Of a stretch of DNA of 41,637 bases, positions 3,777-27,097 are shown one piece after another. Location: the NCBI GenBank assembly GCA_024408855.1, contig JAKSUQ010000018.1:1-41637 (forward strand). The letters are read 5' to 3'. The notes beneath the pieces are model-generated. The model saw nothing but the letters and a program-made list of their open reading frames with translations. It searched no databases and was not told the origin of the DNA. This stretch comes from a bacterium. GTDB taxonomy: Bacteria; Cyanobacteriota; Vampirovibrionia; Gastranaerophilales; Gastranaerophilaceae. How positions within the stretch are numbered: the first letter of the stretch is position 1; the number at the start of each line of letters is the position of its first letter. A program made the translations under genes and the position numbers.

Positions 3777-3859
3777 CAAAGGTACAATTTTTTTTTCAAT
3801 TATGCAAATAATTTGGTGAAAAAAATGTAAATTCGTGTTTTTTGTAAAGTAGAGTTAGC
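3777..3859 (-). promoter_or_regulatory. promoter P3 with upstream operator
   Basis: -7 box 3777-3784, -33 TTTG 3805-3808, spacer 20 bp. The operator (GTAAAGTAGAGTTAGC) at 3844-3859 begins 39 bp from the -33 box, 11 bp closer than the usual 50. It drives five genes from 3732 down to 2246. Confidence 0.8.
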
Positions 3860-3871
3860 AAAATGCCAACC

Positions 3872-4393
3872 CTACTCTTCCATGAACTCATACTCAACTT
3901 CAGTATATTTCATTGTGTCGGGCTTTCTATTATCCGTAGAGATTACGTTTCTAGCCCAAGTACCACATAACTCTTTATTGATGCCACGATAATCTCCACC
4001 ACCTCTGTCATTACCTTCAGCAGTTAATAGTGGTAATGGGTTAATACGATACCCCCACTTATCAGCCTTGATTTTACGCGTATCAATATATACCATCTTA
4101 TCGTGATTGATAATATAACGATACCCAAAAAACGGAAATAAATTAATTACAAACCGATATTTTTCTTGTACCAATCCAAACAAATTTTTGGTTTCGTTTT
4201 TTTCATTATCGGCATAATCACCAGCCCACACAACTTGCATAGGAGTACGATACAAAGCACACATAACACGATTAACAAATGAATTAGTTAAATAACTATG
4301 TTCCATCAATTTTGTTCCTGTGTTATGAGGTTCAATGCCTTTCCAAATGTTTTCAGTGGTTTTCTTCAAGACTGCTTTATAGTATTGTCCCAT
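3872..4393 (-). CDS. MGQYYKAV-type conserved phage protein, paralog A
   Basis: 173 aa. Begins MGQYYKAVLKK and carries KLMEHSYLTN, VVWAGDYADNE, RINPLPLLTAEGNDRGGGDY and a C-terminal YEFMEE. I know these motifs from an uncharacterised protein family widespread in phages; no activity is established. It is the second copy in tandem with 4507-5022, each copy preceded by the same conserved leader. The Gly-rich GNDRGGGDY segment is the most conserved part of the pair. Confidence 0.85.
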   Translation of the reverse strand: MGQYYKAVLKKTTENIWKGIEPHNTGTKLMEHSYLTNSFVNRVMCALYRTPMQVVWAGDYADNEKNETKNLFGLVQEKYRFVINLFPFFGYRYIINHDKMVYIDTRKIKADKWGYRINPLPLLTAEGNDRGGGDYRGINKELCGTWARNVISTDNRKPDTMKYTEVEYEFMEE

Positions 4394-4440
4394 AGTTGTA
4401 TGAACGATTACCTATACATCGTAAGGTTTTAGTTGTTGTT
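4392..4440 (-). promoter_or_regulatory. conserved mRNA leader of paralog A
   Basis: The minus-strand leader contains ACGATGTATAGGTAATCGT, which can form a 5-bp hairpin (ACGAT/ATCGT) just before the ATG. The same leader precedes the genes at 4507, 5400 and 7737. No promoter sits here, so this copy is internal to the P4 transcript. Confidence 0.65.
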
Positions 4441-4506
4441 TTTAAATTTGCTTTTTTTTGTATGCCGGTGTTCGTTGTCTTATCGCAACCGGAAACATGA
4501 AAATAA

Positions 4507-5022
4507 CTAATAAATATCACTTTCTTCAAAATCATATTCAACCTCGGAATATTGGCTATTAGGCTTGGTATAATTAACTTGTATAGTATCTTTTGCCCAA
4601 GTTCCAATTGCCTCCATACAAGTCCCATAATAATCGCCACCACCTAGTCCATTTCCAATAGCAGTTAATAATGGCAATGGGTGTATGCGTTCACCATATT
4701 TATTTTTCTTAATCTTTGAAAGGTCGATAAAAACCTTTTTAGTTTCATTTATCAAATAAATAAATTTATTTTCATCGTAATCCCCATTAACACCAAACTC
4801 GGCTTTGACACAATCCTCGTAGATATTATCATCAGCATATTCACCAGCCCAAACTACTGACATCGGATAAAGATAAATTCTATGAAGAATATCAGAAAGG
4901 AATCTATTACCAATGTAAGAATGTTCCATCAGTTTTGCACCAACACCAAAATCCCAAGGTGTGAAACCTTTCCAAAAACCACCCTCTTCTGCCTTATAGC
5001 AAGCTTTATAACATTGTCCCAT
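4507..5022 (-). CDS. MGQYYKAV-type conserved phage protein, paralog B
   Basis: 171 aa, clearly paralogous to 3872-4393: MGQCYKACYKA start, KLMEHSYIGN, VVWAGEYADD, RIHPLPLLTAIGNGLGGGDY and a C-terminal YDFEE. The N-terminal 25 residues and the middle (about 75-100) have diverged. First gene after promoter P4 and its conserved leader. The tandem duplication including the leader suggests dosage or subfunction divergence. Confidence 0.85.
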   Translation of the reverse strand: MGQCYKACYKAEEGGFWKGFTPWDFGVGAKLMEHSYIGNRFLSDILHRIYLYPMSVVWAGEYADDNIYEDCVKAEFGVNGDYDENKFIYLINETKKVFIDLSKIKKNKYGERIHPLPLLTAIGNGLGGGDYYGTCMEAIGTWAKDTIQVNYTKPNSQYSEVEYDFEESDIY

Positions 5023-5065
5023 ATTAGTTAGAACGATTACCTATACATCGTGAGGTTTTAGTTGT
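5023..5065 (-). promoter_or_regulatory. conserved mRNA leader of paralog B
   Basis: Same CACGATGTATAGGTAATCGT hairpin leader between the P4 start site and the ATG at 5022. Confidence 0.65.
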
Positions 5066-5083
5066 TGTTATTGAAATCTGCTG

Positions 5084-5177
5084 CAAAGGTACAACTTTTT
5101 TTTGATATATGCAAATAAAATGTGAAATAAAATGCAAATACATGGTATATTTGTGTATTTTGCTATGTATAGTTTGC
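5084..5177 (-). promoter_or_regulatory. promoter P4 with degenerate operator
   Basis: -7 box 5084-5091, -33 TTTG 5112-5115, spacer 20 bp. A degenerate operator (GCTATGTATAGTTTGC) at 5162-5177 sits at the standard 50 bp. The mirrored TTTGCATATGTCAAA box starts at 5213, 101 bp from the -33 box. Drives both MGQYYKAV paralogs. Confidence 0.8.
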
Positions 5178-5340
5178 AATTTACAGTTTTTTGCACTTTT
5201 TTATTCTAAAAATTTGCATATGTCAAATATTTTACTTTTTTATATAACACCCGCAACTAAAACTTCAATTTTAAGACAACTTTTTAACAAAGATGATAAT
5301 TTATACCTTAAACGTGAGAAAGTGGCTTAAAACAAAGAAA

Positions 5341-5372
5341 AATGGGCAACCACTTAATTGTGATTGTCCATT
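5341..5372 (-). terminator. rho-independent terminator after parB-like gene
   Basis: Minus strand: AATGGACAATCAC, 6-base loop, GTGGTTGCCCATT followed by TTTCTTTG. One mismatch interrupts a roughly 13-bp stem. Its sequence is unrelated to the other terminators of the array. Confidence 0.8.
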
Positions 5373-5399
5373 TCACCATTATATTTTGTCAACAACCTA

Positions 5400-6299
5400 T
5401 TAGGCTGCATCAGCAACCTCTCCGTCAGTCGGTGCATCAACGAGCATAGACTCGAGAATAACATCTACGTTCTCGTTTTTCAGTCGCTCAACGAGTGCTT
5501 GCATATCAAGGTTCAGTGCCTTGCTCTTACCATACTTGGTTTCAATCTTCGCAATGTAGGAATACAAGGTTTCCATACCCTTGAGAATAGCCTTGCTATC
5601 ACGATAAATAACTGTCTTGGTAGTCAAGTCAATGTCGGTATGCTTAACCAACTTAACTTTCTTCTCACCCTTTTCCTCGGCATTAGCCTTGAGTTTCTCC
5701 AACTCGGCAACAACCGCATCTTGGTTCTTGTTGTTGGCTTGGAGCATACGGCGAAGATTAGAGCCGGAAATTACGTTATCACGCACAGCTTCTTGCAGAC
5801 GAGTGTCCATCTCAAGAATTTGCAACCAATAGGTTACAACACCTTGGTTCTTACCCAAACGCTTGGCAATCTCTGCAATGGTAAAACCGCAGTTCTCGCG
5901 GAGTTTATAAGCGAGTTGTCCCCACTCATACTCGTTAAAGTTCTTACCCTCGTTACGCAAGCCTTGCTGAATGAGCAAATCAGCTTCACTCAAACTCTTG
6001 CTTACGAGAATAGCCGGAACGCGTGCAATGTCCTTACCCTCGGAAATAAGTTGCATAACTGCACGATAGCGACGCTCACCATCAACGAGTTTATAAATAG
6101 TAGTACCATCTTCACGCTTACCACCATCTTGTACGGAAATGGGGTTCAGCATACCCTGCTCGTCAATTTGGCGTGCCAACTCGCTAATATCGCCAAAGTC
6201 ACTACGCGAGTTAAAGCCATCAACGACAACGATGGCACGCGGGTCGATAGAATACAAATCTTTCTTGGTAGTCTTGTTAATCATAGTTGTTGCCTCCAT
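5400..6299 (-). CDS. ParB/Spo0J-like nuclease-domain and HTH protein
   Basis: Up to 299 aa. A ParB N-terminal domain (about residues 18-115) with the nucleotide-binding signature GERRYRA at 74-80 is followed by a ParB-type helix-turn-helix at about 138-160 (FTIAEIAKRLGKNQGVVTYW) and a Lys/Glu-rich linker at 195-225. A GGAGG 8 bases before the second ATG (6284) suggests the real start may be Met6. In plasmids ParB is a CTP-dependent partition clamp; phage homologues may act in DNA segregation or gene control. No ParA is visible nearby. Single-gene unit with its own promoter (P5), the shared leader and a terminator. Confidence 0.92.
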   Translation of the reverse strand: MEATTMINKTTKKDLYSIDPRAIVVVDGFNSRSDFGDISELARQIDEQGMLNPISVQDGGKREDGTTIYKLVDGERRYRAVMQLISEGKDIARVPAILVSKSLSEADLLIQQGLRNEGKNFNEYEWGQLAYKLRENCGFTIAEIAKRLGKNQGVVTYWLQILEMDTRLQEAVRDNVISGSNLRRMLQANNKNQDAVVAELEKLKANAEEKGEKKVKLVKHTDIDLTTKTVIYRDSKAILKGMETLYSYIAKIETKYGKSKALNLDMQALVERLKNENVDVILESMLVDAPTDGEVADAA

Positions 6300-6340
6300 A
6301 ATAGTTAGAACGATTACCTATACATCGTGAGGTTTTATAG
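6300..6340 (-). promoter_or_regulatory. conserved mRNA leader of parB-like gene
   Basis: Carries the same ACGATGTATAGGTAATCGT hairpin as the leaders of the paralog pair and the DUF932 gene. Confidence 0.65.
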
Positions 6341-6361
6341 TTGTTGTTTTTAAATCTGCTG

Positions 6362-6457
6362 CAAAGGTACAACATTTTTTTCATATATGCAAATTATTTG
6401 GCGAAAAAAATGCAAATACCCCTAGTTTTTAACGTTTTTGTAAAGTAGAGTTAGCAA
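6362..6457 (-). promoter_or_regulatory. promoter P5 with upstream operator
   Basis: -7 box 6362-6369, -33 TTTG 6390-6393, spacer 20 bp. The operator GTAAAGTAGAGTTAGC at 6442-6457 lies 52 bp from the -33 box, the one small deviation from the 50-bp rule. It overlaps the last codons of the upstream gene. Drives the ParB-like gene alone. Confidence 0.8.
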
Positions 6458-6803
6458 AATGGTTGATTTCCTCTACATCACCATTGGTATGGATAATATC
6501 AAAACGATAAATAAAACCATTAACCAATTGTTTCTTAATTTCCTCTATATCACCATAGCGGAAATGATAGACAGGTATACGGCTAGTTGTATGTGATAAC
6601 CCACTCATTTCAACCAAGAAATTTTTACCCGACTTGGTGAACTTTTTACACCCATGTGAAGTGTATAGTTCAATAGCCACTAGTTCATCAGGCTTATAGG
6701 ACTTTTTCTTGGGTGTTTCTTTCTTTGTAGACTCAATCGAGTCCTTTGTTTTGGTAGGAGCCATTGGTTTTTGACTCCCACCAATTATAAAATTAATTTG
6801 CAT
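6429..6803 (-). CDS. hypothetical protein, 124 aa, basic linker
   Basis: Residues 14-42 are a Lys/Thr/Ser-rich flexible segment and the rest is a compact mixed domain. The last residues (FANSTLQKR) are encoded by the operator of promoter P5. A perfect GACTC-N4-GAGTC palindrome falls in the linker codons (6730-6744). Second gene of the P6 unit; function unknown. Confidence 0.75.
   Translation of the reverse strand: MQINFIIGGSQKPMAPTKTKDSIESTKKETPKKKSYKPDELVAIELYTSHGCKKFTKSGKNFLVEMSGLSHTTSRIPVYHFRYGDIEEIKKQLVNGFIYRFDIIHTNGDVEEINHFANSTLQKR
6730..6744. repeat. palindromic GACTC-N4-GAGTC element inside a gene
   Basis: Plus strand GACTCAATCGAGTCC, matching the intergenic palindromes but here within the Lys-rich linker codons (KDSIEST) of the 124-aa gene. 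Confidence 0.5.
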
Positions 6804-6820
6804 AGTATTTTCCTTTCTTT

Positions 6821-7471
6821 TTATCGTGAAACAATATCAGCAATCATTTTCACAAGTTCCTCACAAGTGCCACCAAAACAATAACATGAAAAGCGACTTA
6901 AATCGTTATCAGCGAAATCTTGTCCATCAGTTAATGATGGCTTAACATTGCAGAAATACTTTCCATTTAGTGTAATAACAACATAAACACCATCACTGAT
7001 AGTTGATTTAACCTCACTAGCGAAACCATACATTTTCAAACTTTCCAATTGGCTTTTAATATAGTATGCCTTATCGGTTAAACTTTTTATTTTGTTACGT
7101 TCTTCTTCTTCCTTTTTCTTTTTAGCGACTTTGTTGGCATTAACTTGTTTCTCAAATACTTCACGCAGATGCGAATGTTGGTTCATTCTATCTTCAATAA
7201 AGTTGATAAGTTCATTTTCGGAAATATCAACAAGGAAACTCCACCAACCACCATCAAAATCTTCATCGTTGAAACGTTCTACGAAATCAGCAATATTTTC
7301 ATAGCGAGAGGAACGGCTAGTGGTAGATGCATCAAAAAACTGCATACCATCACAATCGAACAACATATTGAGAAATGTTGTCATATAACCCTCACTAGTT
7401 TTCATAAGGTTATCGTACGTGTCGCGAGAAATGTTTTGGTTGTTAGTAACCGGTACAAGAAAAATAAACAT
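6821..7471 (-). CDS. hypothetical protein, 216 aa
   Basis: First gene of the P6 unit. The N-terminal half is mixed, with an acidic FNDEDFDGGWWSF stretch near residue 88. A Lys/Glu-rich helix (about 110-130) precedes a C-terminal domain with GVYVVITLNGKYFCNV. The layout suggests two domains joined by a coiled helix. No family recognised. Confidence 0.8.
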   Translation of the reverse strand: MFIFLVPVTNNQNISRDTYDNLMKTSEGYMTTFLNMLFDCDGMQFFDASTTSRSSRYENIADFVERFNDEDFDGGWWSFLVDISENELINFIEDRMNQHSHLREVFEKQVNANKVAKKKKEEEERNKIKSLTDKAYYIKSQLESLKMYGFASEVKSTISDGVYVVITLNGKYFCNVKPSLTDGQDFADNDLSRFSCYCFGGTCEELVKMIADIVSR

Positions 7472-7519
7472 AATTGTAAATAGTTTTAGTTGTTAATATT
7501 ATCTTTTTGTTATCTGCTG

Positions 7520-7613
7520 CAAAGGTAATGCTTTTTTTTCAATTACGCAAATTATTTGTTAAAAAAAATGCAAATACACCTAGTTTTTAACAATTTTGTA
7601 AAGTAGAGTTAGC
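7520..7613 (-). promoter_or_regulatory. promoter P6 with upstream operator
   Basis: -7 box 7520-7527 (TACCTTTG), -33 TTTG 7548-7551, spacer 20 bp. The operator GTAAAGTAGAGTTAGC at 7598-7613 lies 50 bp from the -33 box, and the mirrored box TTTGCGTATGTCAA starts at 7649 (101 bp). Drives two genes. Confidence 0.82.
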
Positions 7614-7706
7614 AATTTACAGTTTTTTACACTTTTTTGTGTTAAAAATTTGCGTATGTCAATTATTTTACTTTTTTATATATGACGTGCATATATTAAT
7701 AAAAAA

Positions 7707-7728
7707 GGTGACGGATTTCTCCGCCACC
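7707..7728 (-). terminator. rho-independent terminator, GGCGGAGAAATCCG family
   Basis: Minus strand GGTGGCGGA, loop, TCCGTCACC followed by TTTTTT. First of six near-identical copies in the array. Ends the DUF932 unit. Confidence 0.85.
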
Positions 7729-7736
7729 CTTGATTG

Positions 7737-8594
7737 TTATGCAGCCAAAGGAAGATATTCGCTTGCTGCTTGGAAAAGTCCCTTATTGAAGGACAAATCC
7801 TTAACTACCGATTTAATTGGGCGCATCTTACGCATACGATGATTGGTACGGCTTTTCATCGTGTAGTCACCATGCATTGCGTTCTCTTGAATGCGATTGA
7901 ATACGCACCACAAAGAGTCACCCTTATCATCGTCACGTTTAGTGCTCAAAACCTCTTCAATGGTATTCTCCTCAATGTCCTCAACTTTGACATCAACGGC
8001 ACTACGCAGACGAATTGCCTTGATAGCCAAATCACGTTGACTAGCCTTATCCAAAGTGGTGTCACGCATCGTTTGAATAATCTTCGTTTGTTCACCTACT
8101 TGTTGAAGAGATTGTGCTACCATTTGGCGCAGTTCCTCAAAATCGTAGTTCATGTGACGAATAGAAATATCTACCATTTGATTGGTTGCGATAACCAAAC
8201 CATTGGAGCAAATTGTTCTAAAACACCCCACCATAAACTTAAACGAATTGAAACCATCGTGAGAGTTGGTAAGAATGATACGAGGAAAACACTCTACACC
8301 ACCATCGGTGTTAGCGATTGCTACGTTGGGATTTTGGAAAGCAATCATATGGAAACTACGAATACCCTTGCTACCTGCCTTTGCTCGGCATTGTTTTGCC
8401 TCTACGGGATACCAACCCAACTTATCCAAATCGTCAATAATCGTGCTTGTGGTTGCTTGCACGTAACGTCCCGATACATTGGGATTGGAAGGGTTTGTCA
8501 ACGCTGCGTGAGGGGCTTTTTTGAAAACCTCCTCTTTGGTGAGGAAACGAGTTGCAAGTGCATCATTCGAGAAAGAAAGCATCGTATCAGCCAT
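7737..8594 (-). CDS. DUF932 / phage-plasmid-like protein
   Basis: 285 aa. Residues 45-140 match the DUF932 (TIGR03299-type) pattern: a LDKLGWYPVEAKQ segment, then FHMIAFQNPN, ILTNSHDGFNSFKF and CFRTICSNGLV. The family is common on phages and plasmids and has no settled function, though roles in DNA metabolism or anti-restriction have been suggested. Single-gene unit under P7 with the conserved leader and its own terminator, the same layout as the ParB-like gene. Confidence 0.85.
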   Translation of the reverse strand: MADTMLSFSNDALATRFLTKEEVFKKAPHAALTNPSNPNVSGRYVQATTSTIIDDLDKLGWYPVEAKQCRAKAGSKGIRSFHMIAFQNPNVAIANTDGGVECFPRIILTNSHDGFNSFKFMVGCFRTICSNGLVIATNQMVDISIRHMNYDFEELRQMVAQSLQQVGEQTKIIQTMRDTTLDKASQRDLAIKAIRLRSAVDVKVEDIEENTIEEVLSTKRDDDKGDSLWCVFNRIQENAMHGDYTMKSRTNHRMRKMRPIKSVVKDLSFNKGLFQAASEYLPLAA

Positions 8595-8645
8595 AGTTGT
8601 ATGAACGATTACCTATACATCGTGAGGTTTTAGTTGTTGTTTTTT
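8595..8645 (-). promoter_or_regulatory. conserved mRNA leader of DUF932 gene
   Basis: Fourth copy of the CACGATGTATAGGTAATCGT hairpin leader, followed by TTCATACAACT and the ATG exactly as in paralog A. Confidence 0.65.
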
Positions 8646-8656
8646 GTTTGACAATG

Positions 8657-8750
8657 CAAAGGTACAACATTTTTTTCAATTACGCAAATTATTTCGTATT
8701 TTATTTGCGATTTAATGCTGTTTTTGTGTTTTTTGCAAAGTAGAGTTAGC
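8657..8750 (-). promoter_or_regulatory. promoter P7 with upstream operator
   Basis: -7 box 8657-8664, -33 TTTG 8685-8688, spacer 20 bp. The operator GCAAAGTAGAGTTAGC at 8735-8750 lies 50 bp from the -33 box. Drives the DUF932 gene. Confidence 0.82.
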
Positions 8751-8760
8751 AAAATCGGTA

Positions 8761-9006
8761 TTAATACCCAAGATAACGATAACAAACTACGTTGTCTTTA
8801 TTTACCCACACATGATAATGGTATAGGACACTTTCTTGTTCATCTACAACCATTACCATACACGCAGTACCATTTGATTTTGCGTAGGCGGTACTGATAA
8901 TCTCATGTAGATTATTGAAACCTCTTGTGTTACGAACGTGTGCTACAAGTTGTTCGCTATAACTCCAAGCTTCTGCTGAATATTCTTTGTTTCTACTGAC
9001 TCTCAT
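8761..9006 (-). CDS. hypothetical protein, 81 aa
   Basis: Helical N-terminal half and a beta-rich C-terminal half (ACMVMVVDEQE, YHYHVWVNKDN). Six bases after the 56-aa gene in the P8 unit. No terminator follows; the P7 module begins right after its stop. Confidence 0.75.
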   Translation of the reverse strand: MRVSRNKEYSAEAWSYSEQLVAHVRNTRGFNNLHEIISTAYAKSNGTACMVMVVDEQESVLYHYHVWVNKDNVVCYRYLGY

Positions 9007-9012
9007 ATTATA

Positions 9013-9183
9013 TTATTCATAATTGGTTACACACTTACCTGTCATACCGCTACATTCAAATTCGGTAACTGACATTTCATCTGCCATACGTTCAGCCTTT
9101 TCCAATGCTTCTTCCTCGGTTTCGGCTTCAACATCTACGGATGCGTAAAAATCATAATGTACGTTTACACTAAACTTTTTCAT
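9013..9183 (-). CDS. 56-aa protein with VEAETEEEALEKAERM motif
   Basis: Reading from the ATG at 9183 gives MKKFSVNVHYDFYASVDVEA, then ETEEEALEKAERMADEM. One beta-hairpin leading into an EEAxxxAE helix is a pattern shared by many very small phage proteins. First gene of the P8 unit, about 35 bases from the promoter. Function unknown. Confidence 0.75.
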   Translation of the reverse strand: MKKFSVNVHYDFYASVDVEAETEEEALEKAERMADEMSVTEFECSGMTGKCVTNYE

Positions 9184-9226
9184 AATTCTTTTTCCTTTCT
9201 ATTTTAGTTGTTATTGAAATCTGCTG

Positions 9227-9309
9227 CAAAGGTACAACTTTTTTTTCAATTACGCAAATTATTTGGCAAATAAAATACGAATTTGTGTTTTTTGTAAAGT
9301 GTAGTTAGC
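9227..9309 (-). promoter_or_regulatory. promoter P8 with operator shifted by one turn
   Basis: -7 box 9227-9234, -33 TTTG 9255-9258, spacer 20 bp. The operator GTAAAGTGTAGTTAGC at 9294-9309 is 39 bp from the -33 box. The mirrored box starts at 9345 (90 bp), so operator and mirror box have both moved 11 bp together. Drives two genes. Confidence 0.82.
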
Positions 9310-9400
9310 AATTTACTGTTTTTTACACTTTTTTGCTTTAAAAATTTGCATATATCAAATATTTTGCTTTTTTATATATTACATACCTACAAACAAAAAA

Positions 9401-9422: not shown

Positions 9423-9427
9423 TTCAT

Positions 9428-9916: not shown

Positions 9917-9921
9917 GTTAA

Positions 9922-11005: not shown

Positions 11006-11099
11006 CAAAGGTACAACTTTTTTTTCATATATGCAAATAATTTCGCATTTTATTTGCATTTTTAGGGTATATTTGTCGTTTTTGCTAACCACACTTTAC
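11006..11099 (-). promoter_or_regulatory. promoter P9 with operator in reverse half-site order
   Basis: -7 box 11006-11013, -33 TTTG 11034-11037, spacer 20 bp. The operator GCTAACCACACTTTAC at 11084-11099 lies 50 bp away with half-sites in the opposite order to P6. The mirrored box starts at 11135 (101 bp). Drives three genes. Confidence 0.82.
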
Positions 11100-12935: not shown

Positions 12936-13029
12936 CAAAGGTACAACATTTTTTTCAATTACACAAATAATTTGTCGAAAAAAATGCATTTACCCATCAA
13001 TTTTCCTCATTTTGCAAAGTGTAGTTGTC
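12936..13029 (-). promoter_or_regulatory. promoter P10 with upstream operator
   Basis: -7 box 12936-12943, -33 TTTG 12964-12967, spacer 20 bp. The operator GCAAAGTGTAGTTGTC at 13014-13029 lies 50 bp away and is embedded in the final codons of the upstream gene. Drives three genes. Confidence 0.8.
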
Positions 13030-14120: not shown

Positions 14121-14214
14121 CAAAGGTACAACTTTTTTTTCAATTACGCAAATTATTTGGTGAAAAAAATGTATTTTTCTTACTTTTATCTGCATTTTGA
14201 CAACTTGAGTTAGC
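14121..14214 (-). promoter_or_regulatory. promoter P11 with variant operator
   Basis: -7 box 14121-14128, -33 TTTG 14149-14152, spacer 20 bp. The operator GACAACTTGAGTTAGC at 14199-14214 has one diverged half but keeps the 50-bp position. The mirrored box starts at 14250 (101 bp). Drives four genes. Confidence 0.8.
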
Positions 14215-15552: not shown

Positions 15553-15646
15553 CAAAGGTACAACTTTTTTTTCAATTACGCAAATTATTTGGTGAAAAAA
15601 ATGCAAAAAACTAGTAACTTTCTGGGTTTTGCTAACTACACTTTGC
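15553..15646 (-). promoter_or_regulatory. promoter P12 with reversed operator
   Basis: -7 box 15553-15560, -33 TTTG 15581-15584, spacer 20 bp. The operator GCTAACTACACTTTGC at 15631-15646 lies 50 bp away. No mirrored box; a palindromic element takes its place. Drives four genes. Confidence 0.82.
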
Positions 15647-16226: not shown

Positions 16227-16320
16227 CAAAGGTACAAAAAATAATTAATATACGCAAATAATTTAATGAAAAAAGTGCAAAAAACTAGTAACTTTCTGGG
16301 TTTTGCTAACTACACTTTAC
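16227..16320 (-). promoter_or_regulatory. promoter P13 with reversed operator
   Basis: -7 box 16227-16234, -33 TTTG 16255-16258, spacer 20 bp. Operator GCTAACTACACTTTAC at 16305-16320 (50 bp). Mirrored box from 16356 (101 bp). The segment from the -33 box to the operator is nearly identical to that of P12. Drives two genes. Confidence 0.82.
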
Positions 16321-17342: not shown

Positions 17343-17436
17343 CAAAGGTACTGTTTTTTTTTGATATATGCAAATTTTTTATTGAAAAAGTGCTGTTTTT
17401 TTGCTATTTTTGTCAATTTTGCTAACTACACTTTGC
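17343..17436 (-). promoter_or_regulatory. promoter P14 with reversed operator
   Basis: -7 box 17343-17350, -33 TTTG 17371-17374, spacer 20 bp. Operator GCTAACTACACTTTGC at 17421-17436 (50 bp), 6 bases from the stop of the upstream gene. Drives two genes. Confidence 0.82.
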
Positions 17437-18203: not shown

Positions 18204-18297
18204 CAAAATTACAAAAAATAATTGATATATGCAAATAATTTAATGAAAAAAATAACAAAAACAGTAAAATACCTGATTTTTGCTAACTACACTTTAC
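18204..18297 (-). promoter_or_regulatory. promoter P15 (variant -7 box) with reversed operator
   Basis: -7 box TAATTTTG at 18204-18211, -33 TTTG 18232-18235, spacer 20 bp. Operator GCTAACTACACTTTAC at 18282-18297 (50 bp), mirrored box from 18333 (101 bp). The altered -7 box still fits TAnnTTTG. Confidence 0.8.
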
Positions 18298-19361: not shown

Positions 19362-19455
19362 CAAAGGTACAACAATTTTTTGATATATGCAAATAATTTC
19401 GCATTTTATTTGCATTTTTCTAGTAACTTTGTCGTTTTTGTAAAGTAAAGTTAGC
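19362..19455 (-). promoter_or_regulatory. promoter P16 with operator
   Basis: -7 box 19362-19369, -33 TTTG 19390-19393, spacer 20 bp. Operator GTAAAGTAAAGTTAGC at 19440-19455 (50 bp). Mirrored box TTTGTGTATGTCAA from 19491 (101 bp). Drives two genes. Confidence 0.82.
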
Positions 19456-20452: not shown

Positions 20453-20546
20453 CAAAGGTACAACATTTTTTTGATATATGCAAATAATTTGGTGAAAAAA
20501 ACACAAAAAAACACTATTTTCCTGTAAATTGTAAACTCAAGTTAGC
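20453..20546 (-). promoter_or_regulatory. promoter P17 with operator
   Basis: -7 box 20453-20460, -33 TTTG 20481-20484, spacer 20 bp. Operator GTAAACTCAAGTTAGC at 20531-20546 (50 bp). Mirrored box (CTTGCATATATCAAA) from 20582 (101 bp). Drives the interrupted gene and two intact ones. Confidence 0.8.
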
Positions 20547-21440: not shown

Positions 21441-21475
21441 AATGTTTAAATTTTAGTTGTTTTTGAATTACGATG

Positions 21476-21569
21476 CAAAAGTACAACATTTTTTTGATAT
21501 ATGCAAATTTTTAAGTAAAAAAATAGCATTTTTCATGTATATTTATAACTTTTGCTAACTACACTTTGC
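21476..21569 (-). promoter_or_regulatory. promoter P18 with reversed operator
   Basis: -7 box TACTTTTG 21476-21483, -33 TTTG 21504-21507, spacer 20 bp. Operator GCTAACTACACTTTGC at 21554-21569 (50 bp), directly before the stop of the upstream gene. Drives two genes. Confidence 0.82.
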
Positions 21570-21573
21570 AAAA

Positions 21574-22179
21574 TCACCAAATTAACCCATATTCATATAG
21601 TTCATCTACTAATTTCTCATCGCGTAATTTATTCGTGTCAATACGATATTTATGCCCAACCATCTGCTTAAATTGGCTAACACCATTTTTAATATCAACA
21701 AATGGTTTATAGTAACGAATAATCTCTAATGCCACCGAAAAACAATTGCAAAGATACGGCATATCATAATACGTGATTTTACCAATAAAACCAATTGTTA
21801 GCACATCGTTATTATTAACGTAATCAGCAAATGCTTTGGCTAACTCAATGATTTCATCTTTGGTATAATTACCATACGTGGTAATACTACCCTTAACACT
21901 TTGCAAATCTTGTTCAGTCAAAAGTTCCCATTTATCACACCAAGTGCTATTGATGTACATACGTTTTGGGTGTCCAATGTTACCATAAACTTGCTTACCA
22001 CGATAATAATTGGCTTTTGCACGCACATCTTCATTCAAAGGTATAATAACCCCAAATTTAGATTTAATTTCATCTACAAGCGAATTGGTATAAACCAATA
22101 ACTCCGTATCATAGAAACAATGCCCATCAATAGAAAATTGATTGCCACCATAGTTCTTAATTACCAAATCCTTAATCAT
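21574..22179 (-). CDS. hypothetical protein, 201 aa
   Basis: The start at 22179 (MIKDLVIKNYGGNQFSIDGH) is used because longer frames enter promoter P19. Contains KANYYRGKQVYGNIGHPKRM near 70-90 and a helical C-terminal half (ELAKAFADYVNNNDVLTIGF). Single-gene unit; no family recognised. Confidence 0.8.
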   Translation of the reverse strand: MIKDLVIKNYGGNQFSIDGHCFYDTELLVYTNSLVDEIKSKFGVIIPLNEDVRAKANYYRGKQVYGNIGHPKRMYINSTWCDKWELLTEQDLQSVKGSITTYGNYTKDEIIELAKAFADYVNNNDVLTIGFIGKITYYDMPYLCNCFSVALEIIRYYKPFVDIKNGVSQFKQMVGHKYRIDTNKLRDEKLVDELYEYGLIW

Positions 22180-22215
22180 AATTGTTGTTGTTTTAGTTGT
22201 TATTGAAATCTGCTG

Positions 22216-22309
22216 CAAAATTACAACATTTTTTTGATATATGCAAATAATTTCACATTTTATTTACACTTTTGGCATATATTTCTATTTTTTGCTAACT
22301 ACACTTTGC
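22216..22309 (-). promoter_or_regulatory. promoter P19 (variant -7 box) with reversed operator
   Basis: -7 box TAATTTTG 22216-22223, -33 TTTG 22244-22247, spacer 20 bp. Operator GCTAACTACACTTTGC at 22294-22309 (50 bp). The mirrored box starts at 22324, only 80 bp from the -33 box: two helical turns closer than usual. Confidence 0.8.
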
Positions 22310-22383
22310 AAAATACAAATAAATTTGCAAGTTCCATTTATTTGTGTATTTTATATATCATATATGTGCATAATAATAAAAAA

Positions 22384-22400
22384 GGTACTCAATCGAGTCC
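22384..22400. repeat. palindromic element copy 7, possible tandem terminator
   Basis: Minus strand GGACTCGATTGAGTACC followed by TTTTTTATT, directly downstream of the terminator at 22415. With the T-run it can act as a second short terminator. Confidence 0.6.
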
Positions 22401-22414
22401 ATACATACGAAAAA

Positions 22415-22436
22415 GGTGACGGATTTCTCCGCCACC
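22415..22436 (-). terminator. rho-independent terminator, GGCGGAGAAATCCG family
   Basis: Sixth and rightmost copy of this hairpin, followed by TTTTTCG. Ends the P20 unit. Confidence 0.85.
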
Positions 22437-22465
22437 CAAACAACAAAAATTATGGAACATTATTA

Positions 22466-22849
22466 TCAAACTCGTACGATCCTGACAACATTTGAAACCT
22501 CCGGGATAATAGCCATTCGCTTATTGGCTTTTTTATCACGAATACGAATGTTATCTTCATCAGCAATAATCTCAAATGAATTGAATGTGATGTTATCTTG
22601 AATGTTCGGTTCTTCAACCTCACTTATTGTCCACCAATAGCCATATACATCATTAGATATATGGCAAACACTTGTACATGGTGGATAATGATATGGACGT
22701 TGATAAATGAATCCACCTTGATACTCTCTGAACAATTTAAGTTCTTTTTCAAACTCCGCTTTCATTGCTTCAAAAGCATTTTCATGACTATTAAAAGTTG
22801 AAACTTTCACAACATCATGTACTTCATTAACACAAGTTAAAATAAACAT
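22466..22849 (-). CDS. hypothetical protein, 127 aa
   Basis: Beta strand start (MFILTCVNEVHDVVKVSTFN), an acidic helix (NAFEAMKAEFEKELKLFREY) and a C-terminal beta segment. Architecture (strand, AFEAM helix, aromatic strands) resembles the 148-aa protein at 14476 only loosely. Last gene of the P20 unit. Confidence 0.78.
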   Translation of the reverse strand: MFILTCVNEVHDVVKVSTFNSHENAFEAMKAEFEKELKLFREYQGGFIYQRPYHYPPCTSVCHISNDVYGYWWTISEVEEPNIQDNITFNSFEIIADEDNIRIRDKKANKRMAIIPEVSNVVRIVRV

Positions 22850-22870
22850 AATCGTATATATTAAAATTAA

Positions 22871-22978
22871 TTATTCCCAATATTCACTTTCGCAATCGTA
22901 TCGTTCTTCACGCCTAGTAAATTTTTGTACTTTTGGTGTGTAGTAACTTTCACACTCCCATTGCTGTTTTTTAGCCAT
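22871..22978 (-). CDS. 35-aa microprotein
   Basis: Reads MAKKQQWECESYYTPKVQKF, then TRREERYDCESEYWE. Two CES motifs 24 residues apart may form a disulfide or metal site. Packed between the 75-aa and 127-aa genes. Confidence 0.6.
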   Translation of the reverse strand: MAKKQQWECESYYTPKVQKFTRREERYDCESEYWE

Positions 22979-22992
22979 AATATTGTATAATT

Positions 22993-23220
22993 TTATTCGT
23001 GAATAATATCCATATCTAACAATTGCTGAAGTGTCATATCTTTGCAATCACTCTGCAACACGGCATATGTATCAGCCGTAGGATAACTAACGTGATAAGC
23101 ACTTCTCCTACCATTGACACATACATCAATTAAGCCTTGAGTCGGGTGCGAGTTCTCAACATAACAATGCAACTCAATACCATCTTTGGTAGTCAATCTG
23201 CAAAATTTCGGTGTCATCAT
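22993..23220 (-). CDS. hypothetical protein, 75 aa
   Basis: Start at 23220 (MMTPKFCRLTTKDGIELHCY); upstream frame overlaps promoter P20. Beta-rich (LIDVCVNGRRSAYHVSY), ending with DMTLQQLLDMDIIHE. First gene of the P20 unit. Unknown. Confidence 0.75.
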   Translation of the reverse strand: MMTPKFCRLTTKDGIELHCYVENSHPTQGLIDVCVNGRRSAYHVSYPTADTYAVLQSDCKDMTLQQLLDMDIIHE

Positions 23221-23251
23221 AATTGTTTTCCTTTCTTTTTGTTTGACGATG

Positions 23252-23345
23252 CAAAGGTACAAAAAAAATTTGACATACGCAAATAATTCAGTGAAAAAAG
23301 TATATTTTTCTTGCATATTTGTGGTTTTTGTAAAGTCAAGTTAGC
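23252..23345 (-). promoter_or_regulatory. promoter P20 with operator
   Basis: -7 box 23252-23259, -33 TTTG 23280-23283, spacer 20 bp. Operator GTAAAGTCAAGTTAGC at 23330-23345 (50 bp). Mirrored box from 23381 (101 bp). Drives three genes. Confidence 0.82.
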
Positions 23346-23438
23346 AATTTACATTTTTCCTAAATTTTTCCTCTCAAAAATTTGCAGGTTTCAAATATTT
23401 TTTTATTTTATATATCATTTACAACAATAAGCAAAAAA

Positions 23439-23466
23439 TAAGGCGACTTTCACAAGCCACCTTATT
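23439..23466 (-). terminator. rho-independent terminator, GGCTTGTGAAAGTCGC family
   Basis: Minus strand ATAAGGTGGC, loop TTGTGAAA, GTCGCCTTAT then TTTTTTGC. First of four copies of a second terminator family confined to 23.4-26.4 kb. Ends the P21 unit. Confidence 0.82.
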
Positions 23467-23496
23467 CAAAACATCACTACTATTATCTTATGAAAG

Positions 23497-23898
23497 TTAT
23501 TTACTATAACAATGTTCTAACGATGTTACATTCGTTTTTACAACACCTAAAAGACAGCGATAAACCAAACAATCAATCAAATAAGTTAGTCTAACATCCC
23601 ACTCAATAGGTGTTGGTTCACATTCTAAATGTATCTTATATGTCTTACGCAGAAATGTATCTACATCGTCAATCTTTTTAACCGCATCGTTATTTAATGC
23701 CGTTATTTCAGTTTCTCCACCCCAACCATCATTCATTGCGGAACCAACCTTAACAAGACAACCTTTATCTTTGTCTTGAAGATATATGTCACAATGAAAT
23801 GGTAGACTATCGTCGTGCCCATATGTTTCTTTTACATCTTCTAACTTGATAATATGTTTACCGCCATTATCAAGATAACAAGTAATTGTTTTTCCCAT
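23497..23898 (-). CDS. hypothetical protein, 133 aa
   Basis: Beta-rich N-terminal two thirds (GKTITCYLDNGGKHIIKLED, HCDIYLQDKDKGCLVKVGS) and a helical C-terminus. Last gene of the P21 unit. Unknown. Confidence 0.78.
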   Translation of the reverse strand: MGKTITCYLDNGGKHIIKLEDVKETYGHDDSLPFHCDIYLQDKDKGCLVKVGSAMNDGWGGETEITALNNDAVKKIDDVDTFLRKTYKIHLECEPTPIEWDVRLTYLIDCLVYRCLLGVVKTNVTSLEHCYSK

Positions 23899-23903
23899 AA
23901 CAC

Positions 23904-24011
23904 TTAATGATTTTTGAATGAATAACTATCGGTTATTTCTTCTTCTTTACCGAATATCTTTTCTCCTAAATACCACATAGGGTAAATTGAAATACCTAAT
24001 GCAAGTAACAT
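23904..24011 (-). CDS. 35-aa microprotein with hydrophobic N-terminus
   Basis: Reads MLLALGISIYPMWYLGEKIF, then GKEEEITDSYSFKNH. The first 17 residues are hydrophobic, enough for a short membrane helix, followed by an acidic soluble tail. It lies 11 bases after the protease-fold gene, in the same transcript. Confidence 0.6.
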   Translation of the reverse strand: MLLALGISIYPMWYLGEKIFGKEEEITDSYSFKNH

Positions 24012-24022
24012 AATTGTAAGTA

Positions 24023-24421
24023 TTAAGAATTAAACACCCAATAACCATATACACAACGGCTACCATTTCTATCAGGTTGATATGTGTCATTTATCACACC
24101 ATCAATAACCGCAACGCAATGCCCACTACAACTGCATACAATTCTACCTTTTGGTAATTCACTCTCAACAAGATGTGTTTTGCAACCGCTACCAATTTCC
24201 ATACAAGCAACCCAATGTCCACCAAAATGTTCTGCCGCTTGACGAGTGTATTTCTTACGTACACCATTTCTTGGACTTTCACCACTTATTTTATGTATGT
24301 AATTATACACCTCTTTGTAATCAGTACACGATGCAATTGCTATCGAACGAGTAACGCAATCAGCAACGTTTTTACCTTTGAAATACTTGGCTCTACCGCC
24401 ATCGTTAAATTTGAACTCCAT
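24023..24421 (-). CDS. papain-fold (C39-like) phage protein
   Basis: 132 aa. A conserved NVADCVTRSIAIAS segment puts Cys22 at the start of the first helix, SGHCVAVIDG places His101 before a strand, and NDTYQPD supplies an Asn/Asp at 111-112, then YGYW. This Cys-His-Asx layout is that of small peptidase-C39-like phage proteins. Such proteins are predicted cysteine peptidases or transpeptidases; the substrate here is unknown. First gene of the P21 unit. Confidence 0.75.
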   Translation of the reverse strand: MEFKFNDGGRAKYFKGKNVADCVTRSIAIASCTDYKEVYNYIHKISGESPRNGVRKKYTRQAAEHFGGHWVACMEIGSGCKTHLVESELPKGRIVCSCSGHCVAVIDGVINDTYQPDRNGSRCVYGYWVFNS

Positions 24422-24467
24422 AATAGTTTGTTTTAGTTGTTTATAATGTTGTTATTGAATTATGGTG

Positions 24468-24561
24468 CAAAGGTACAAAAAATTTTTGACATATGCAAAT
24501 TTTTAAATGATTATTTGTTAAATATTATCATTTTTTGTTAATTTTGCTAATTACACTTTAC
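24468..24561 (-). promoter_or_regulatory. promoter P21 with reversed operator
   Basis: -7 box 24468-24475, -33 TTTG 24496-24499, spacer 20 bp. Operator GCTAATTACACTTTAC at 24546-24561 (50 bp). Mirrored box from 24576 (80 bp, as at P19). Drives three genes. Confidence 0.82.
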
Positions 24562-24633
24562 AAAAACAAAATAAATTTGCAGGTATCAATTATTTTTCTA
24601 TTTTATATATCACATACCCAATAACACAAAAAA

Positions 24634-24661
24634 TAGTGCCGACTTTCACAAGCCGACACTA
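24634..24661 (-). terminator. rho-independent terminator of the non-coding RNA
   Basis: Minus strand TAGTGTCGGC, loop TTGTGAAA, GTCGGCACTA then TTTTTTGTG. A diverged member of the second terminator family. Confidence 0.82.
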
Positions 24662-24692
24662 CCACAACATTATAACCATCAAACCTATATAG

Positions 24693-24851
24693 TTGCTACG
24701 AATGGACTTGAACCATTAACCAATCACTTATTCAACACCATTTATCAAACTGCACACACCACAAATCACATAAGGTTTTTAATGCTATTTTCACCGCCTA
24801 TCGGTATATTGTGGTATAAGTGTCGCTCTAACACTATTGAGCTACGTAGCG
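24693..24851 (-). tRNA. interrupted or degenerate tRNA-like sequence
   Basis: 5' part: CGCTACG, TA, a D-arm with GCTC/GAGC, then CACTTAT. 3' part: ATAAGTG, then T-arm AATGG-TTCAAGT-CCATT and CGTAGCA-A. The acceptor pairs at six of seven positions, with C1 opposed to A72 as in bacterial initiator tRNA. The perfect 7-bp CACTTAT/ATAAGTG encloses 84 bases (24732-24815), leaving an insert of about 80 nt in the anticodon loop. That is too short for a group I intron and its core motifs are absent. The D-loop lacks GG and CCA is not encoded, so this may be a tRNA mimic or relic. The anticodon cannot be assigned. Confidence 0.45.
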
Positions 24852-25192
24852 AATTTGTTTGCCTATTAATTTATATCTGAATCTATCTAATTATTATATT
24901 TTCACCCAATGGGCGGTGGTTTATTTCTCATAGCCAAAGAGAATTATGTGCTACTCTATAATGGTGGTGAGCACGATTACCATTACTCCATTTTAACTAA
25001 TATATCTTTGAAATTATTTATAAACTATGTCATTACCATTGACTACATAGTCTGTCCTCTAATTCGCACCATACATAGACGACTTAAAAAGGTTAATAAC
25101 GATTTTGTATTATACTATCTTTTTATTTAATATCAGCCTATTAAGGCGGTGGTTTATTTTTCATATTCAGCCTTTCTTTTTGTTTGACGATG

Positions 25193-25286
25193 CAAAGGTA
25201 CAACTTTTTTTTGATATATGCAAATTTTTCACTAAAAAAAATGCAAAAAACCCCTATTTTCCTGTAAATTGCTAACTACACTTTAC
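25193..25286 (-). promoter_or_regulatory. promoter P22 of the non-coding RNA, reversed operator
   Basis: -7 box 25193-25200, -33 TTTG 25221-25224, spacer 20 bp. Operator GCTAACTACACTTTAC at 25271-25286 (50 bp). Mirrored box from 25322 (101 bp). The same full module as at protein units, which argues that the RNA is a bona fide product of the array. Confidence 0.82.
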
Positions 25287-25380
25287 ATTTTACACTTTTC
25301 CTAAATTTTTCCCCTCAAAAATTTGCAAGTTTCATTTATTTGTTTATTTTATATATTGCATATACCTATATTTAAAAAAA

Positions 25381-25406
25381 TAGAGCGACTTTCACAAGCC
25401 ACTCTA
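25381..25406 (-). terminator. rho-independent terminator, GGCTTGTGAAAGTCGC family
   Basis: Minus strand TAGAGTGGC, loop, GTCGCTCTA then seven T. Ends the P23 unit. Confidence 0.82.
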
Positions 25407-25438
25407 TCAGCAAAAAACATTGTTTTTATTGAATTATT

Positions 25439-25792
25439 TTAATCAGTCACTTCAAAGTAATATCTTGCCGCATCACCTTTTAAGTTCTCGCCACACCAAC
25501 TATCCAACTCTTGCCACAAATCATTATAGGTTTCAGCCATCTCACTATTATGCCCATAGTGCTCCCAAATCTTATGGTTTAATACCATTACCATTTCAGT
25601 AATATATTTGTAGTCACTTTTCCAAGCATTGAAAGCACGCTTGTAGGTGTCTTTTACTCCTTTGGCACCACTTACCAATTCAGCCAAAGTGAAATCGCTA
25701 TAAAAGGTTGTGAAAGCCTCATAACCGCTCATTTCACGGACTTGTTGTTTCCACGCGTATTCGCGTCTTGCTGCAACTTCAAAAATTGTCAT
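25439..25792 (-). CDS. conserved phage protein, 117 aa, helical
   Basis: Start at 25792 (MTIFEVAARREYAWKQQVRE). Motifs FTTFYSDFTLAELV, GVKDTYKRAFNAWKSDYK, EMVMVLNHKIW and the C-terminal YYFEVTD recall an uncharacterised phage family whose members end in an aromatic-TTD-like tail. All-helical, function not established. Second gene of the P23 unit. Confidence 0.8.
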   Translation of the reverse strand: MTIFEVAARREYAWKQQVREMSGYEAFTTFYSDFTLAELVSGAKGVKDTYKRAFNAWKSDYKYITEMVMVLNHKIWEHYGHNSEMAETYNDLWQELDSWCGENLKGDAARYYFEVTD

Positions 25793-25814
25793 AATTGTAA
25801 TATTTTTTATCGTT

Positions 25815-26087
25815 TTAATATCCAAAATATGAGGAACAATCGAAATAATAATGTTTGGTATTATCATCATTATTACGTGCACAAGTCCAATGAAAACTTG
25901 CTCGTCCCAATGCACCTAAAACAATCTCTCTACCAAGATTTTTAATTGCCGATTGAATACTACTCTTACGATTATTACAAGTAATAACACAAGATTTGCT
26001 TGCAGCAATAATTTGCTCAAAATCACTCTCTATATAACCAATCTTTTTAAGATAGGTTTTGTCTTTTTCGGTTAAATTGAATAACAT
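25815..26087 (-). CDS. hypothetical protein, 90 aa
   Basis: Start at 26087 (MLFNLTEKDKTYLKKIGYIE); the longer frame overlaps promoter P23. A helix with ESDFEQIIAASKSCVITCN is followed by a Cys/aromatic C-terminus (HYYFDCSSYFGY). First gene of its unit. Unknown. Confidence 0.75.
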   Translation of the reverse strand: MLFNLTEKDKTYLKKIGYIESDFEQIIAASKSCVITCNNRKSSIQSAIKNLGREIVLGALGRASFHWTCARNNDDNTKHYYFDCSSYFGY

Positions 26088-26112
26088 AATTAGTTGTTTT
26101 TGAATTACGATG

Positions 26113-26206
26113 CAAAGGTACAACATTTTTTTGACATATGCAAATGATTTCGCATTTTATTTACATTTTTCTAGTAACTTTGTGATATTTGCTAACTCGA
26201 CTTTAC
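26113..26206 (-). promoter_or_regulatory. promoter P23 with reversed operator
   Basis: -7 box 26113-26120, -33 TTTG 26141-26144, spacer 20 bp. Operator GCTAACTCGACTTTAC at 26191-26206 (50 bp). Mirrored box (CTTGTATATATCAAA) from 26242 (101 bp). Confidence 0.82.
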
Positions 26207-26292
26207 AAAAACAAGAAATATCAAAGAAAAATCACAAAACACTTGTATATATCAAATATTTTGCTTTTTTATATATCATTTATATCAACATT

Positions 26293-26309
26293 GGGACTCA
26301 ATCGAGTAC
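26293..26309. repeat. palindromic GACTC-AATC-GAGTA element, copy 8
   Basis: Intergenic, between the mirrored box of P23 and the terminator at 26323, the same kind of position as copies 6 and 7. Confidence 0.6.
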
Positions 26310-26322
26310 ATATACAAACAAA

Positions 26323-26348
26323 TAGAGCGACTTTCACAAGCCACTCTA
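26323..26348 (-). terminator. rho-independent terminator, GGCTTGTGAAAGTCGC family
   Basis: Identical hairpin to 25381; the downstream T-tract is interrupted (TTTGTTTG). Ends the P24 unit. Confidence 0.8.
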
Positions 26349-26391
26349 TCAAAAAGCATAAGAAATCTATGTCCAAAGAATTGTTACTCTT

Positions 26392-26943
26392 TTAGGCTGC
26401 GAGAGCAAATTGCTCTCGCGATACCTTTTCACCATTCACCGAAATCGAAATGATGTTAGCCAATGCTACACAACGTGCAATTACTTGGTTCTCCGTCAAT
26501 CCGGCTTCAGTCTGTCTTGCACTCGGCTCACGCTCGGTGTATTGCTTAATCTTAGCAATCTGCTCTGCCGTAGCGGGCTTGCCATCTACAAAATACTGAA
26601 CATCAATGCTTGCACCGCTCAAACCATAATAGCGAACATACAACGCACCTTTATTCTCAATAAGTTTGTTTACCTGGCCGTCTACCCACTTTCCCCAAGG
26701 CAAAGACATTGCGGTAAATTCTACCTTTTCACCTTGCTCCTTGCTTGCACGATTGGCAACCGCATTCTCATAAGAGAAATTGAATTGTACTTGCGTACGA
26801 ACGATTTTGCGAATATCTACACCGCAAACATCAGCCGCTTGCGCTTTCGTCAATTTTACTTTGCTTTCGTATTCAAGCCCACCAAATTGGCAACCCTTAA
26901 TGTTACGAATTACATTCTCTACTACACTTTCAAAAGTTTTCAT
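26392..26943 (-). CDS. conserved phage protein, 183 aa
   Basis: Begins MKTFESVVENVIRNIKGCQF, then GGLEYESKVKLTKAQAADV, TQVQFNFSYENAVANR near 66-82, LPWGKWVDGQVNKLIENKG and YVRYYGLSGASIDVQYFVDG. It resembles roughly 180-aa uncharacterised phage proteins I have seen, but I cannot attach a function. Its codon use is noticeably more GC-rich than most neighbours, like the ParB-like and DUF932 genes. Single-gene unit. Confidence 0.82.
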   Translation of the reverse strand: MKTFESVVENVIRNIKGCQFGGLEYESKVKLTKAQAADVCGVDIRKIVRTQVQFNFSYENAVANRASKEQGEKVEFTAMSLPWGKWVDGQVNKLIENKGALYVRYYGLSGASIDVQYFVDGKPATAEQIAKIKQYTEREPSARQTEAGLTENQVIARCVALANIISISVNGEKVSREQFALAA

Positions 26944-27003
26944 AATGTTTGATTTTTTAGTTGTTAATAATGTTGTGTTTTCCTATCTTTTGGAAATCTG
27001 CTG

Positions 27004-27097
27004 CAAAGGTACAGCTTTTTTTTGACATATGCAAATTTTATTGCAAAAAAGTGTCAAAAAACTAGTAACTTTGTGGATTTTGCTAACTACACTTTGC
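27004..27097 (-). promoter_or_regulatory. promoter P24 with reversed operator, rightmost of the array
   Basis: -7 box 27004-27011, -33 TTTG 27032-27035, spacer 20 bp. Operator GCTAACTACACTTTGC at 27082-27097 (50 bp). A degenerate mirrored box (ATTGCATAATCCATT) starts near 27144, 112 bp from the -33 box. Confidence 0.8.

What the first reader, a model, noticed from the sequence alone, without database searches (positions are those of the whole stretch)
3777..27097. A 16-bp pseudo-palindrome at fixed distance upstream of 22 of 24 promoters, in either half-site order
At promoters P3 to P24 a 16-bp element reads GTAAAGTnnAGTTAGC (10 copies) or its reverse complement (11 copies), with one degenerate copy. 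Its first base is 50 bp from the first base of the -33 box in 19 cases, 39 bp in two (P3, P8) and 52 bp in one (P5). The centre stays put when the orientation flips. Read as two inward half-sites (GCTAACT and GCAAAGT/GTAAAGT, sharing GYwAAsT) it is the operator of a dimeric regulator, centred about 90 bp upstream of transcription. The 39-bp exceptions are one helical turn closer. These positions are my own counts. A single phage regulator acting on a whole 24-kb array would be a regulon of unusual uniformity, comparable in spirit to mycobacteriophage stoperators or class I activator sites.
Basis: seen in the sequence. Interest (0 to 1): 0.9.

Follow-up and report, generated by a model that had tools for sequence, protein, structure and literature searches.

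The report
Phased upstream operator on phage promoters
A near-palindromic DNA site sits at a fixed distance, always a whole number of helix turns, upstream of 22 of 24 recognised promoters in this gut-phage fragment; the same arrangement occurs in unrelated phages and twice in one bacterial genome, so it looks like the docking site of an unidentified gene switch that the host cell may supply.

Summary
A weight matrix trained only on other phages finds exactly 22 sites in the window. All lie at P3-P24: 20 leave 46 nt to the -33 TTTG and 2 (P3, P8) leave 35 nt. The reported P5 exception is a miscount. In reverse, a matrix from the window finds 18 sites in a 327-kb jumbo myophage, all at promoters (17 at 35 nt, 1 at 24 nt). 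Over 48 sites the distance to the -7 box is 48, 59-60 or 69-70 nt, so registers differ by one helical turn. The site is TTGYWAASTnnASTTWRCAA.

The same module occurs singly in a microvirus, a tailed phage and two related phages carrying accessory genes, and at two chromosomal promoters of one Bacteroidales genome (one before pckA). The ParB-like candidate is excluded. A sister jumbo phage keeps homologous block genes and promoters but not the element.

Best explanation: an operator for an unidentified dimeric factor that contacts host sigma-A RNA polymerase from one helical face, most likely an activator already in the host cell. DNA geometry is shown; the protein, its source and the sign of regulation are inferred.

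The parts
3844..3859 (.). element of P3 (core promoter 3777-3808, minus strand), gap 35 nt
5162..5177 (.). degenerate element of P4 (core 5084-5115), gap 46 nt
6440..6455 (.). element of P5 (core 6362-6393), gap 46 nt; also inside the 3' end of ORF 6429-6803
7598..7613 (.). element of P6 (core 7520-7551), gap 46 nt
8735..8750 (.). element of P7 (core 8657-8688), gap 46 nt
9294..9309 (.). element of P8 (core 9227-9258), gap 35 nt
11084..11099 (.). element of P9 (core 11006-11037), gap 46 nt
13014..13029 (.). element of P10 (core 12936-12967), gap 46 nt, weak copy
14199..14214 (.). element of P11 (core 14121-14152), gap 46 nt, weakest copy
15631..15646 (.). element of P12 (core 15553-15584), gap 46 nt
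16305..16320 (.). element of P13 (core 16227-16258), gap 46 nt
17421..17436 (.). element of P14 (core 17343-17374), gap 46 nt
18282..18297 (.). element of P15 (core 18204-18235), gap 46 nt
19440..19455 (.). element of P16 (core 19362-19393), gap 46 nt
20531..20546 (.). element of P17 (core 20453-20484), gap 46 nt
21554..21569 (.). element of P18 (core 21476-21507), gap 46 nt
22294..22309 (.). element of P19 (core 22216-22247), gap 46 nt
23330..23345 (.). element of P20 (core 23252-23283), gap 46 nt
24546..24561 (.). element of P21 (core 24468-24499), gap 46 nt
25271..25286 (.). element of P22 (core 25193-25224), gap 46 nt
26191..26206 (.). element of P23 (core 26113-26144), gap 46 nt
27082..27097 (.). 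element of P24 (core 27004-27035), gap 46 nt
100..131 (-). P1 core promoter without the element
2211..2242 (-). P2 core promoter without the element
7649..7686 (+). opposite-facing -33-like unit TTTGCRTATGTCAAWTATTTTRCTTTTTTATATAT, 35 nt from the element on its other side; example of 12 copies at this gap (beside the elements at 5162, 7598, 9294, 11084, 14199, 16305, 18282, 19440, 20531, 23330, 25271, 26191), two more at 14 nt (22294, 24546); lacks a TAnnTTTG -7 box

Best explanation
The element is the operator of a sequence-specific, probably homodimeric DNA-binding protein with half-site TTGYWAAST and a 2-bp centre. Bound about 70, 80 or 90 bp upstream of the start and always on the same helical face, it touches host RNA polymerase on otherwise ordinary Bacteroidetes sigma-A promoters, most likely through an alpha subunit over the A/T-tract spacer, and raises initiation in the manner of a class I activator. 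The factor is more likely supplied by the host cell than by the phage. Jumbo phages have put this promoter module in front of nearly every unit of a block of small, probably early and accessory genes. Shown: site, conservation, phasing, phage and host occurrences. Inferred: the protein, its host origin, activation rather than repression, early timing.
For: Two-way prediction between phages: 22 of 22 sites in the window and 18 of 18 in the 327-kb phage fall at promoters. The phages differ in GC (32% and 42%) and share few of the block's genes. The distance to the -7 box takes three registers about 11 nt apart, 48, 59-60 and 69-70, over 48 sites, as expected for protein contact on one face. Half-sites are inverted and accepted in either order. 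In 12 places in the window an opposite-facing TTTGCATAT-like -33 region lies exactly 35 nt from the other side of the element. Host source: the same module in a microvirus upstream of its Rep gene, in a tailed phage, in two related phages before hicA or other small genes, and at 2 of 107 promoters sampled from one Bacteroidales genome, one before pckA. Phage core promoters match that genome's own promoters over 30-40 bp.
Against: No binding, expression or start-site data. Of 392 Bacteroidales genomes only this one had convincing copies, so a widely conserved host factor is not indicated. Core promoters are near consensus, so activation may not be needed. The centres (about -68.5, -79.5, -90.5) are not the textbook Crp positions known from E. 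coli. In the window nearly every site joins one GCTAACT and one GYAAAGT half, which would also fit a heterodimer or copying. A phage-borne factor shared by several mobile elements is not excluded.
Confidence: 0.48

Rival explanations
1. A phage-encoded dimeric regulator, made early or injected with the genome, binds the element and switches the whole block on.
For: High copy number only in jumbo phages. The 327-kb phage carries transcription proteins: two sigma-70-like proteins and a 163-aa protein ending in an RNA polymerase alpha C-terminal domain. That phage also has a second promoter class without the element, fitting temporal classes.
Against: The module occurs in a roughly 5.5-kb microvirus contig, in other phages and before host pckA. 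No recognisable HTH regulator is shared between the element-bearing phages. The alpha-CTD protein was not found in the other records searched, most of which lack the element or are fragments.
Confidence: 0.25
2. The bound protein is a repressor or shut-off factor that acts from upstream through polymerase contact, as phi29 p4 does at promoter A2c (from general knowledge), silencing the block later in infection.
For: Near-consensus cores; uniform sites; a fixed helical face is compatible with over-stabilising contacts.
Against: The sites never overlap the core promoter and there is no second operator for looping. Occurrence before hicA-type accessory genes and host pckA does not specially suggest phage shut-off.
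Confidence: 0.17
3. The element is a site-specific recombination site, for example of a serine recombinase with a 2-bp central crossover, that spread the gene cassettes.
For: Imperfect palindrome with a 2-bp centre, one per cassette, in either orientation.
Against: The central dinucleotide differs between copies (AG, GT, AC, AA, CA, CG and others), although such recombination needs matching centres. The fixed phase to promoters, the pckA site and the lack of a recognised recombinase among the scanned window proteins are not explained.
Confidence: 0.04
4. The uniform spacing is only a by-product of recent copying of one intergenic cassette inside the phage.
For: The spacers keep some similarity (56% identity against 35% when shuffled). 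Intergenic units with terminators look copied.
Against: The same site and the same or one-turn-shifted spacing occur in a 42%-GC phage with other spacers, in unrelated phages and in a chromosome.
Confidence: 0.05

Closest known systems
Class I activator sites (Crp/CAP type)
   Same: Dimeric palindrome upstream of the core promoter, usable at several positions one helical turn apart.
   Different: Other sequence, other absolute positions, about 20 copies on consecutive promoters of one virus; the protein is unknown.
Bacteroides Crp-like regulator BT4338 (Cur)
   Same: A global Bacteroides regulator proposed to bind a 22-bp palindrome near sigma-A promoters (PMC3878776, PMC6989115).
   Different: Published consensus wwwTATGTTnTAnAACATAwww (PMC3878776) does not match TTGYWAASTnnASTTWRCAA.
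phi29 protein p4 sites
   Same: A phage-used dimer site about 70-80 bp upstream that acts through the polymerase alpha C-terminal domain (general knowledge).
   Different: Few sites, one small phage, different sequence; here possibly a host protein.
Mycobacteriophage L5-type stoperators
   Same: More than twenty copies of one short site in a phage genome.
   Different: Asymmetric, monomer-bound, orientation-dependent and also away from promoters (PMC9283540); here near-symmetric and only at promoters.
Bacteroidetes sigma-A promoters (TTTG / TAnnTTTG)
   Same: The core promoters of the array are of this kind (PMC7366714).
   Different: The phased upstream operator is an addition: only 2 of 107 host promoters sampled have it.

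Membership tests
Bacteroidetes sigma-A promoter | -33 TTTG and -7 TAnnTTTG with about 20 nt between | tested here: met
   24 of 24 in the window; near-identical promoters in a Bacteroidales genome
Class I type activator site | site upstream of the core promoter, on one helical face, tolerating whole-turn shifts | tested here: met
   distance to -7 box 48, 59-60 or 69-70 nt over 48 sites
Class I type activator site | bound factor raises transcription through the alpha C-terminal domain | not testable with these tools
   needs protein and transcription assays
Bacteroides Crp-like (BT4338) site | consensus wwwTATGTTnTAnAACATAwww | tested here: not met
   compared by eye with the published consensus; half-sites differ
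L5-type stoperator | asymmetric site with orientation fixed relative to transcription | tested here: not met
   10 and 11 copies in the two orders, plus one ambiguous
L5-type stoperator | many copies away from promoters | tested here: not met
   all 22 matrix hits of the window are at promoters
ParB partition site of the window's ParB-like protein | occurs together with the ParB-like gene | tested here: not met
   gene absent from the 327-kb phage that has 18 sites; present in a sister phage without sites
Serine recombinase crossover site | identical central dinucleotide among partner sites | tested here: not met
   central dinucleotide varies

The most novel reading that the evidence does not exclude
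A still unknown transcription factor of some gut or rumen Bacteroidales, with very few targets in its own genome, is used as a ready-made early activator by quite different viruses: jumbo myophages that place its site before almost every early unit, a microvirus, and phages with accessory genes. A single host protein would then be a shared dependency of unrelated phages.
Probability: 0.35. Interest if true: 0.82.

Novelty: new variant of a known kind. Interest (0 to 1): 0.64.

Why it matters
Little was found here on how phages of gut Bacteroidales control their genes. This module predicts promoters at base-pair precision across phages, defines a phased regulatory grammar for sigma-A promoters, and gives a bait for isolating an unknown factor. 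If that factor is a host protein, its loss could make cells resistant to several unrelated phages. The module could also be a ready-made part for gene expression in Bacteroides.

Tried and rejected
ParB-like protein as the factor: rejected by presence/absence. Search for a shared DNA-binding protein in element-bearing phages: no clear HTH candidate. Control searches in genomes near the window's own assembly were set aside. That assembly is probably not Bacteroidota: more Shine-Dalgarno-like starts and few TTTG/TAnnTTTG promoters, and sampled relatives whose genome sizes look like Cyanobacteriota, an inference. The window is then a mis-binned phage contig. The proper control is, in the order of a Bacteroidales genome. 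Architecture hits L256, L257, L259 and L261-L264 are one conserved stretch, apparently coding sequence, and L260 and the G868 hit have poor elements: not counted. Two 16-mer hits in a Bacteroidales assembly with a jumbo-phage contig have no promoter beside them: chance. BT4338 motif: does not match. No related phage in the annotated phage collection by megablast. No structure prediction was run for lack of a convincing candidate.

Full report
What is there. The window is a 41.6-kb contig with 24 minus-strand promoters of the Bacteroidetes sigma-A kind, TTTG-N20-TAnnTTTG. A near-palindrome lies upstream of P3 to P24. I tested it without circularity: a matrix built only from 14 sites of five other phage contigs was run over the window. 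It found 22 sites, none elsewhere above background, all at P3-P24, with 46 nt to the TTTG in 20 cases and 35 nt in P3 and P8. In reverse, a matrix from the 22 window sites finds 18 sites in a 327-kb phage (IMGVR_UViG_3300033463_000001), 17 at 35 nt and one at 24 nt from a promoter. That phage encodes a T4-type head protein, terminase, portal and tail sheath. A 118-kb relative has two sites, at 35 and 24 nt.

Consensus and geometry. Over the phage sites the consensus is TTGYWAASTnnASTTWRCAA. The invariant letters are TTG..AA.T and its mirror. Most sites have a GYAAAGT half, and the partner half is looser. The distance from element to -7 box is 48 (2 sites), 59-60 (23) or 69-70 (23), adding the singles described below. 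The step is one helical turn. If the -7 box covers -12 to -5 (PMC9723704), the centres are near -68.5, -79.5 and -90.5. The spacer is A/T-tract rich and less conserved than the element or the core.

A second feature. On the other side of the element, at 12 sites of the window, a plus-strand TTTGCATATGTCAAATATTTTGCTTTTTTATATAT lies exactly 35 nt away. Two more lie 14 nt away, which is two turns less. The first 15 bases equal the -33 region of the real promoters, but no TAnnTTTG follows. These may be decayed or differently read divergent promoters. The 118-kb relative has one clear (and one shifted) counterpart.

Who uses it. The jumbo phages use it in one block of small genes: about 24 kb in the window and 48-73 kb in the 327-kb phage. 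Outside that block the 327-kb phage has promoters with another motif, CGTCCAAAGGA, directly at the TTTG. A third jumbo phage (356 kb) has a homologous block, including the ParB-like gene at 46% identity, with 36 promoters and no element. Two other relatives also lack it. So the element is lineage-specific and can be exchanged.

Beyond jumbo phages. Pattern scans of viral contigs found single copies with the same spacing in a microvirus contig (capsid F and Rep proteins; the promoter lies before a 52-aa gene and Rep), in a phage with a tape-measure protein, and in two related phages before hicA or other small genes. In 392 genomes of the order of a Bacteroidales assembly, the full architecture occurred convincingly in one genome, twice. 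One copy precedes pckA (PEP carboxykinase). The other lies between corA and a tRNA-Leu gene, before a putative transcript of about 70 nt that ends in a hairpin. In 532 kb of that genome 107 strict promoters were counted; these two score 28.9 and 25.7 and the next best 1.7. A microvirus is unlikely to bring its own regulator, so a factor already in the host cell is the simplest source, though not proven.

Host caution. The assembly that holds the window is probably not a Bacteroidota: its other contigs show more Shine-Dalgarno-like starts and few such promoters. The contig seems mis-binned, and absence of the element in that assembly and its relatives says nothing about the true host.

Mechanism. 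The data fit a dimeric protein at fixed helical phase making contact with RNA polymerase. Activation is preferred because the sites never touch the core promoter and resemble class I sites. Upstream-acting repression as with phi29 p4 stays possible. The ParB-like protein is excluded as the factor. No regulator was identified.

Comparison. The published Bacteroides Crp-like motif differs (PMC3878776). L5 stoperators fail on symmetry and on position (PMC9283540). I found no paper that describes this element, with the limits of an open-access library.

Verdict. Real, well above chance, predictive across phages, and of uncertain protein. I rate it a new variant of a known kind, with a possible host factor shared by unrelated phages as the most interesting reading.

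Noticed in passing
window 4417, 5046, 6323, 8618 (minus strand); L038 and L039 (327-kb phage positions 48219, 53134, 53803, 65215, 68637): 5' leaders of several block genes carry a small hairpin, ACCTYWC-NNNN-GTATAGG-NN-NNNN, whose stem changes on both sides between copies and phages (CGAT/ATCG, CAAT/ATTG, CGGT/ACCG, CCAT/ATGG), often about 45 nt after the -7 box. Possibly an RNA element of early mRNAs.
   Followed up: partly
L050:15490-15981 (327-kb phage, 295490-295981): A phage protein of 163 aa ends in a detached RNA polymerase alpha C-terminal domain, closest to cellular alpha subunits; the same phage has two sigma-70-like proteins.
   Followed up: partly
L036-L052 (327-kb phage): A second promoter class carries CGTCCAAAGGA directly before the TTTG, outside the element block (10 matches to a motif pattern): probably another regulator or time class.
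   Followed up: no
L170-L172 (356-kb phage, 155000-193000): A homologous gene block has 36 promoters without the element; 9 of them carry GTTAA-N4-7-TTAA close upstream instead.
   Followed up: partly
window 5213-26270, right of 14 elements: Opposite-facing TTTGCATATGTCAAATATTTTGCTTTTTTATATAT units between element and terminator hairpins, without a recognisable -7 box.
   Followed up: partly
window 27689-41637: Genes outside the block lack the consensus promoters; some start after TATTTATAAAAATAAA-like stretches, perhaps late-type promoters.
   Followed up: no
window 36967-37296 (probable), 37302-38129, 38873-40816: A Tad2-like (anti-Thoeris) protein among the scanned set, an ADP-ribosylglycohydrolase, and a protein with a choloylglycine-hydrolase-like domain.
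   Followed up: no
window 27300-27560: C-rich stretch (runs of CCCC) in the gap between the block and the plus-strand genes, unusual for a 32% GC contig.
   Followed up: no
window, whole contig: Binned in a 1.96-Mb assembly that appears not to be Bacteroidota: likely mis-binning.
   Followed up: partly
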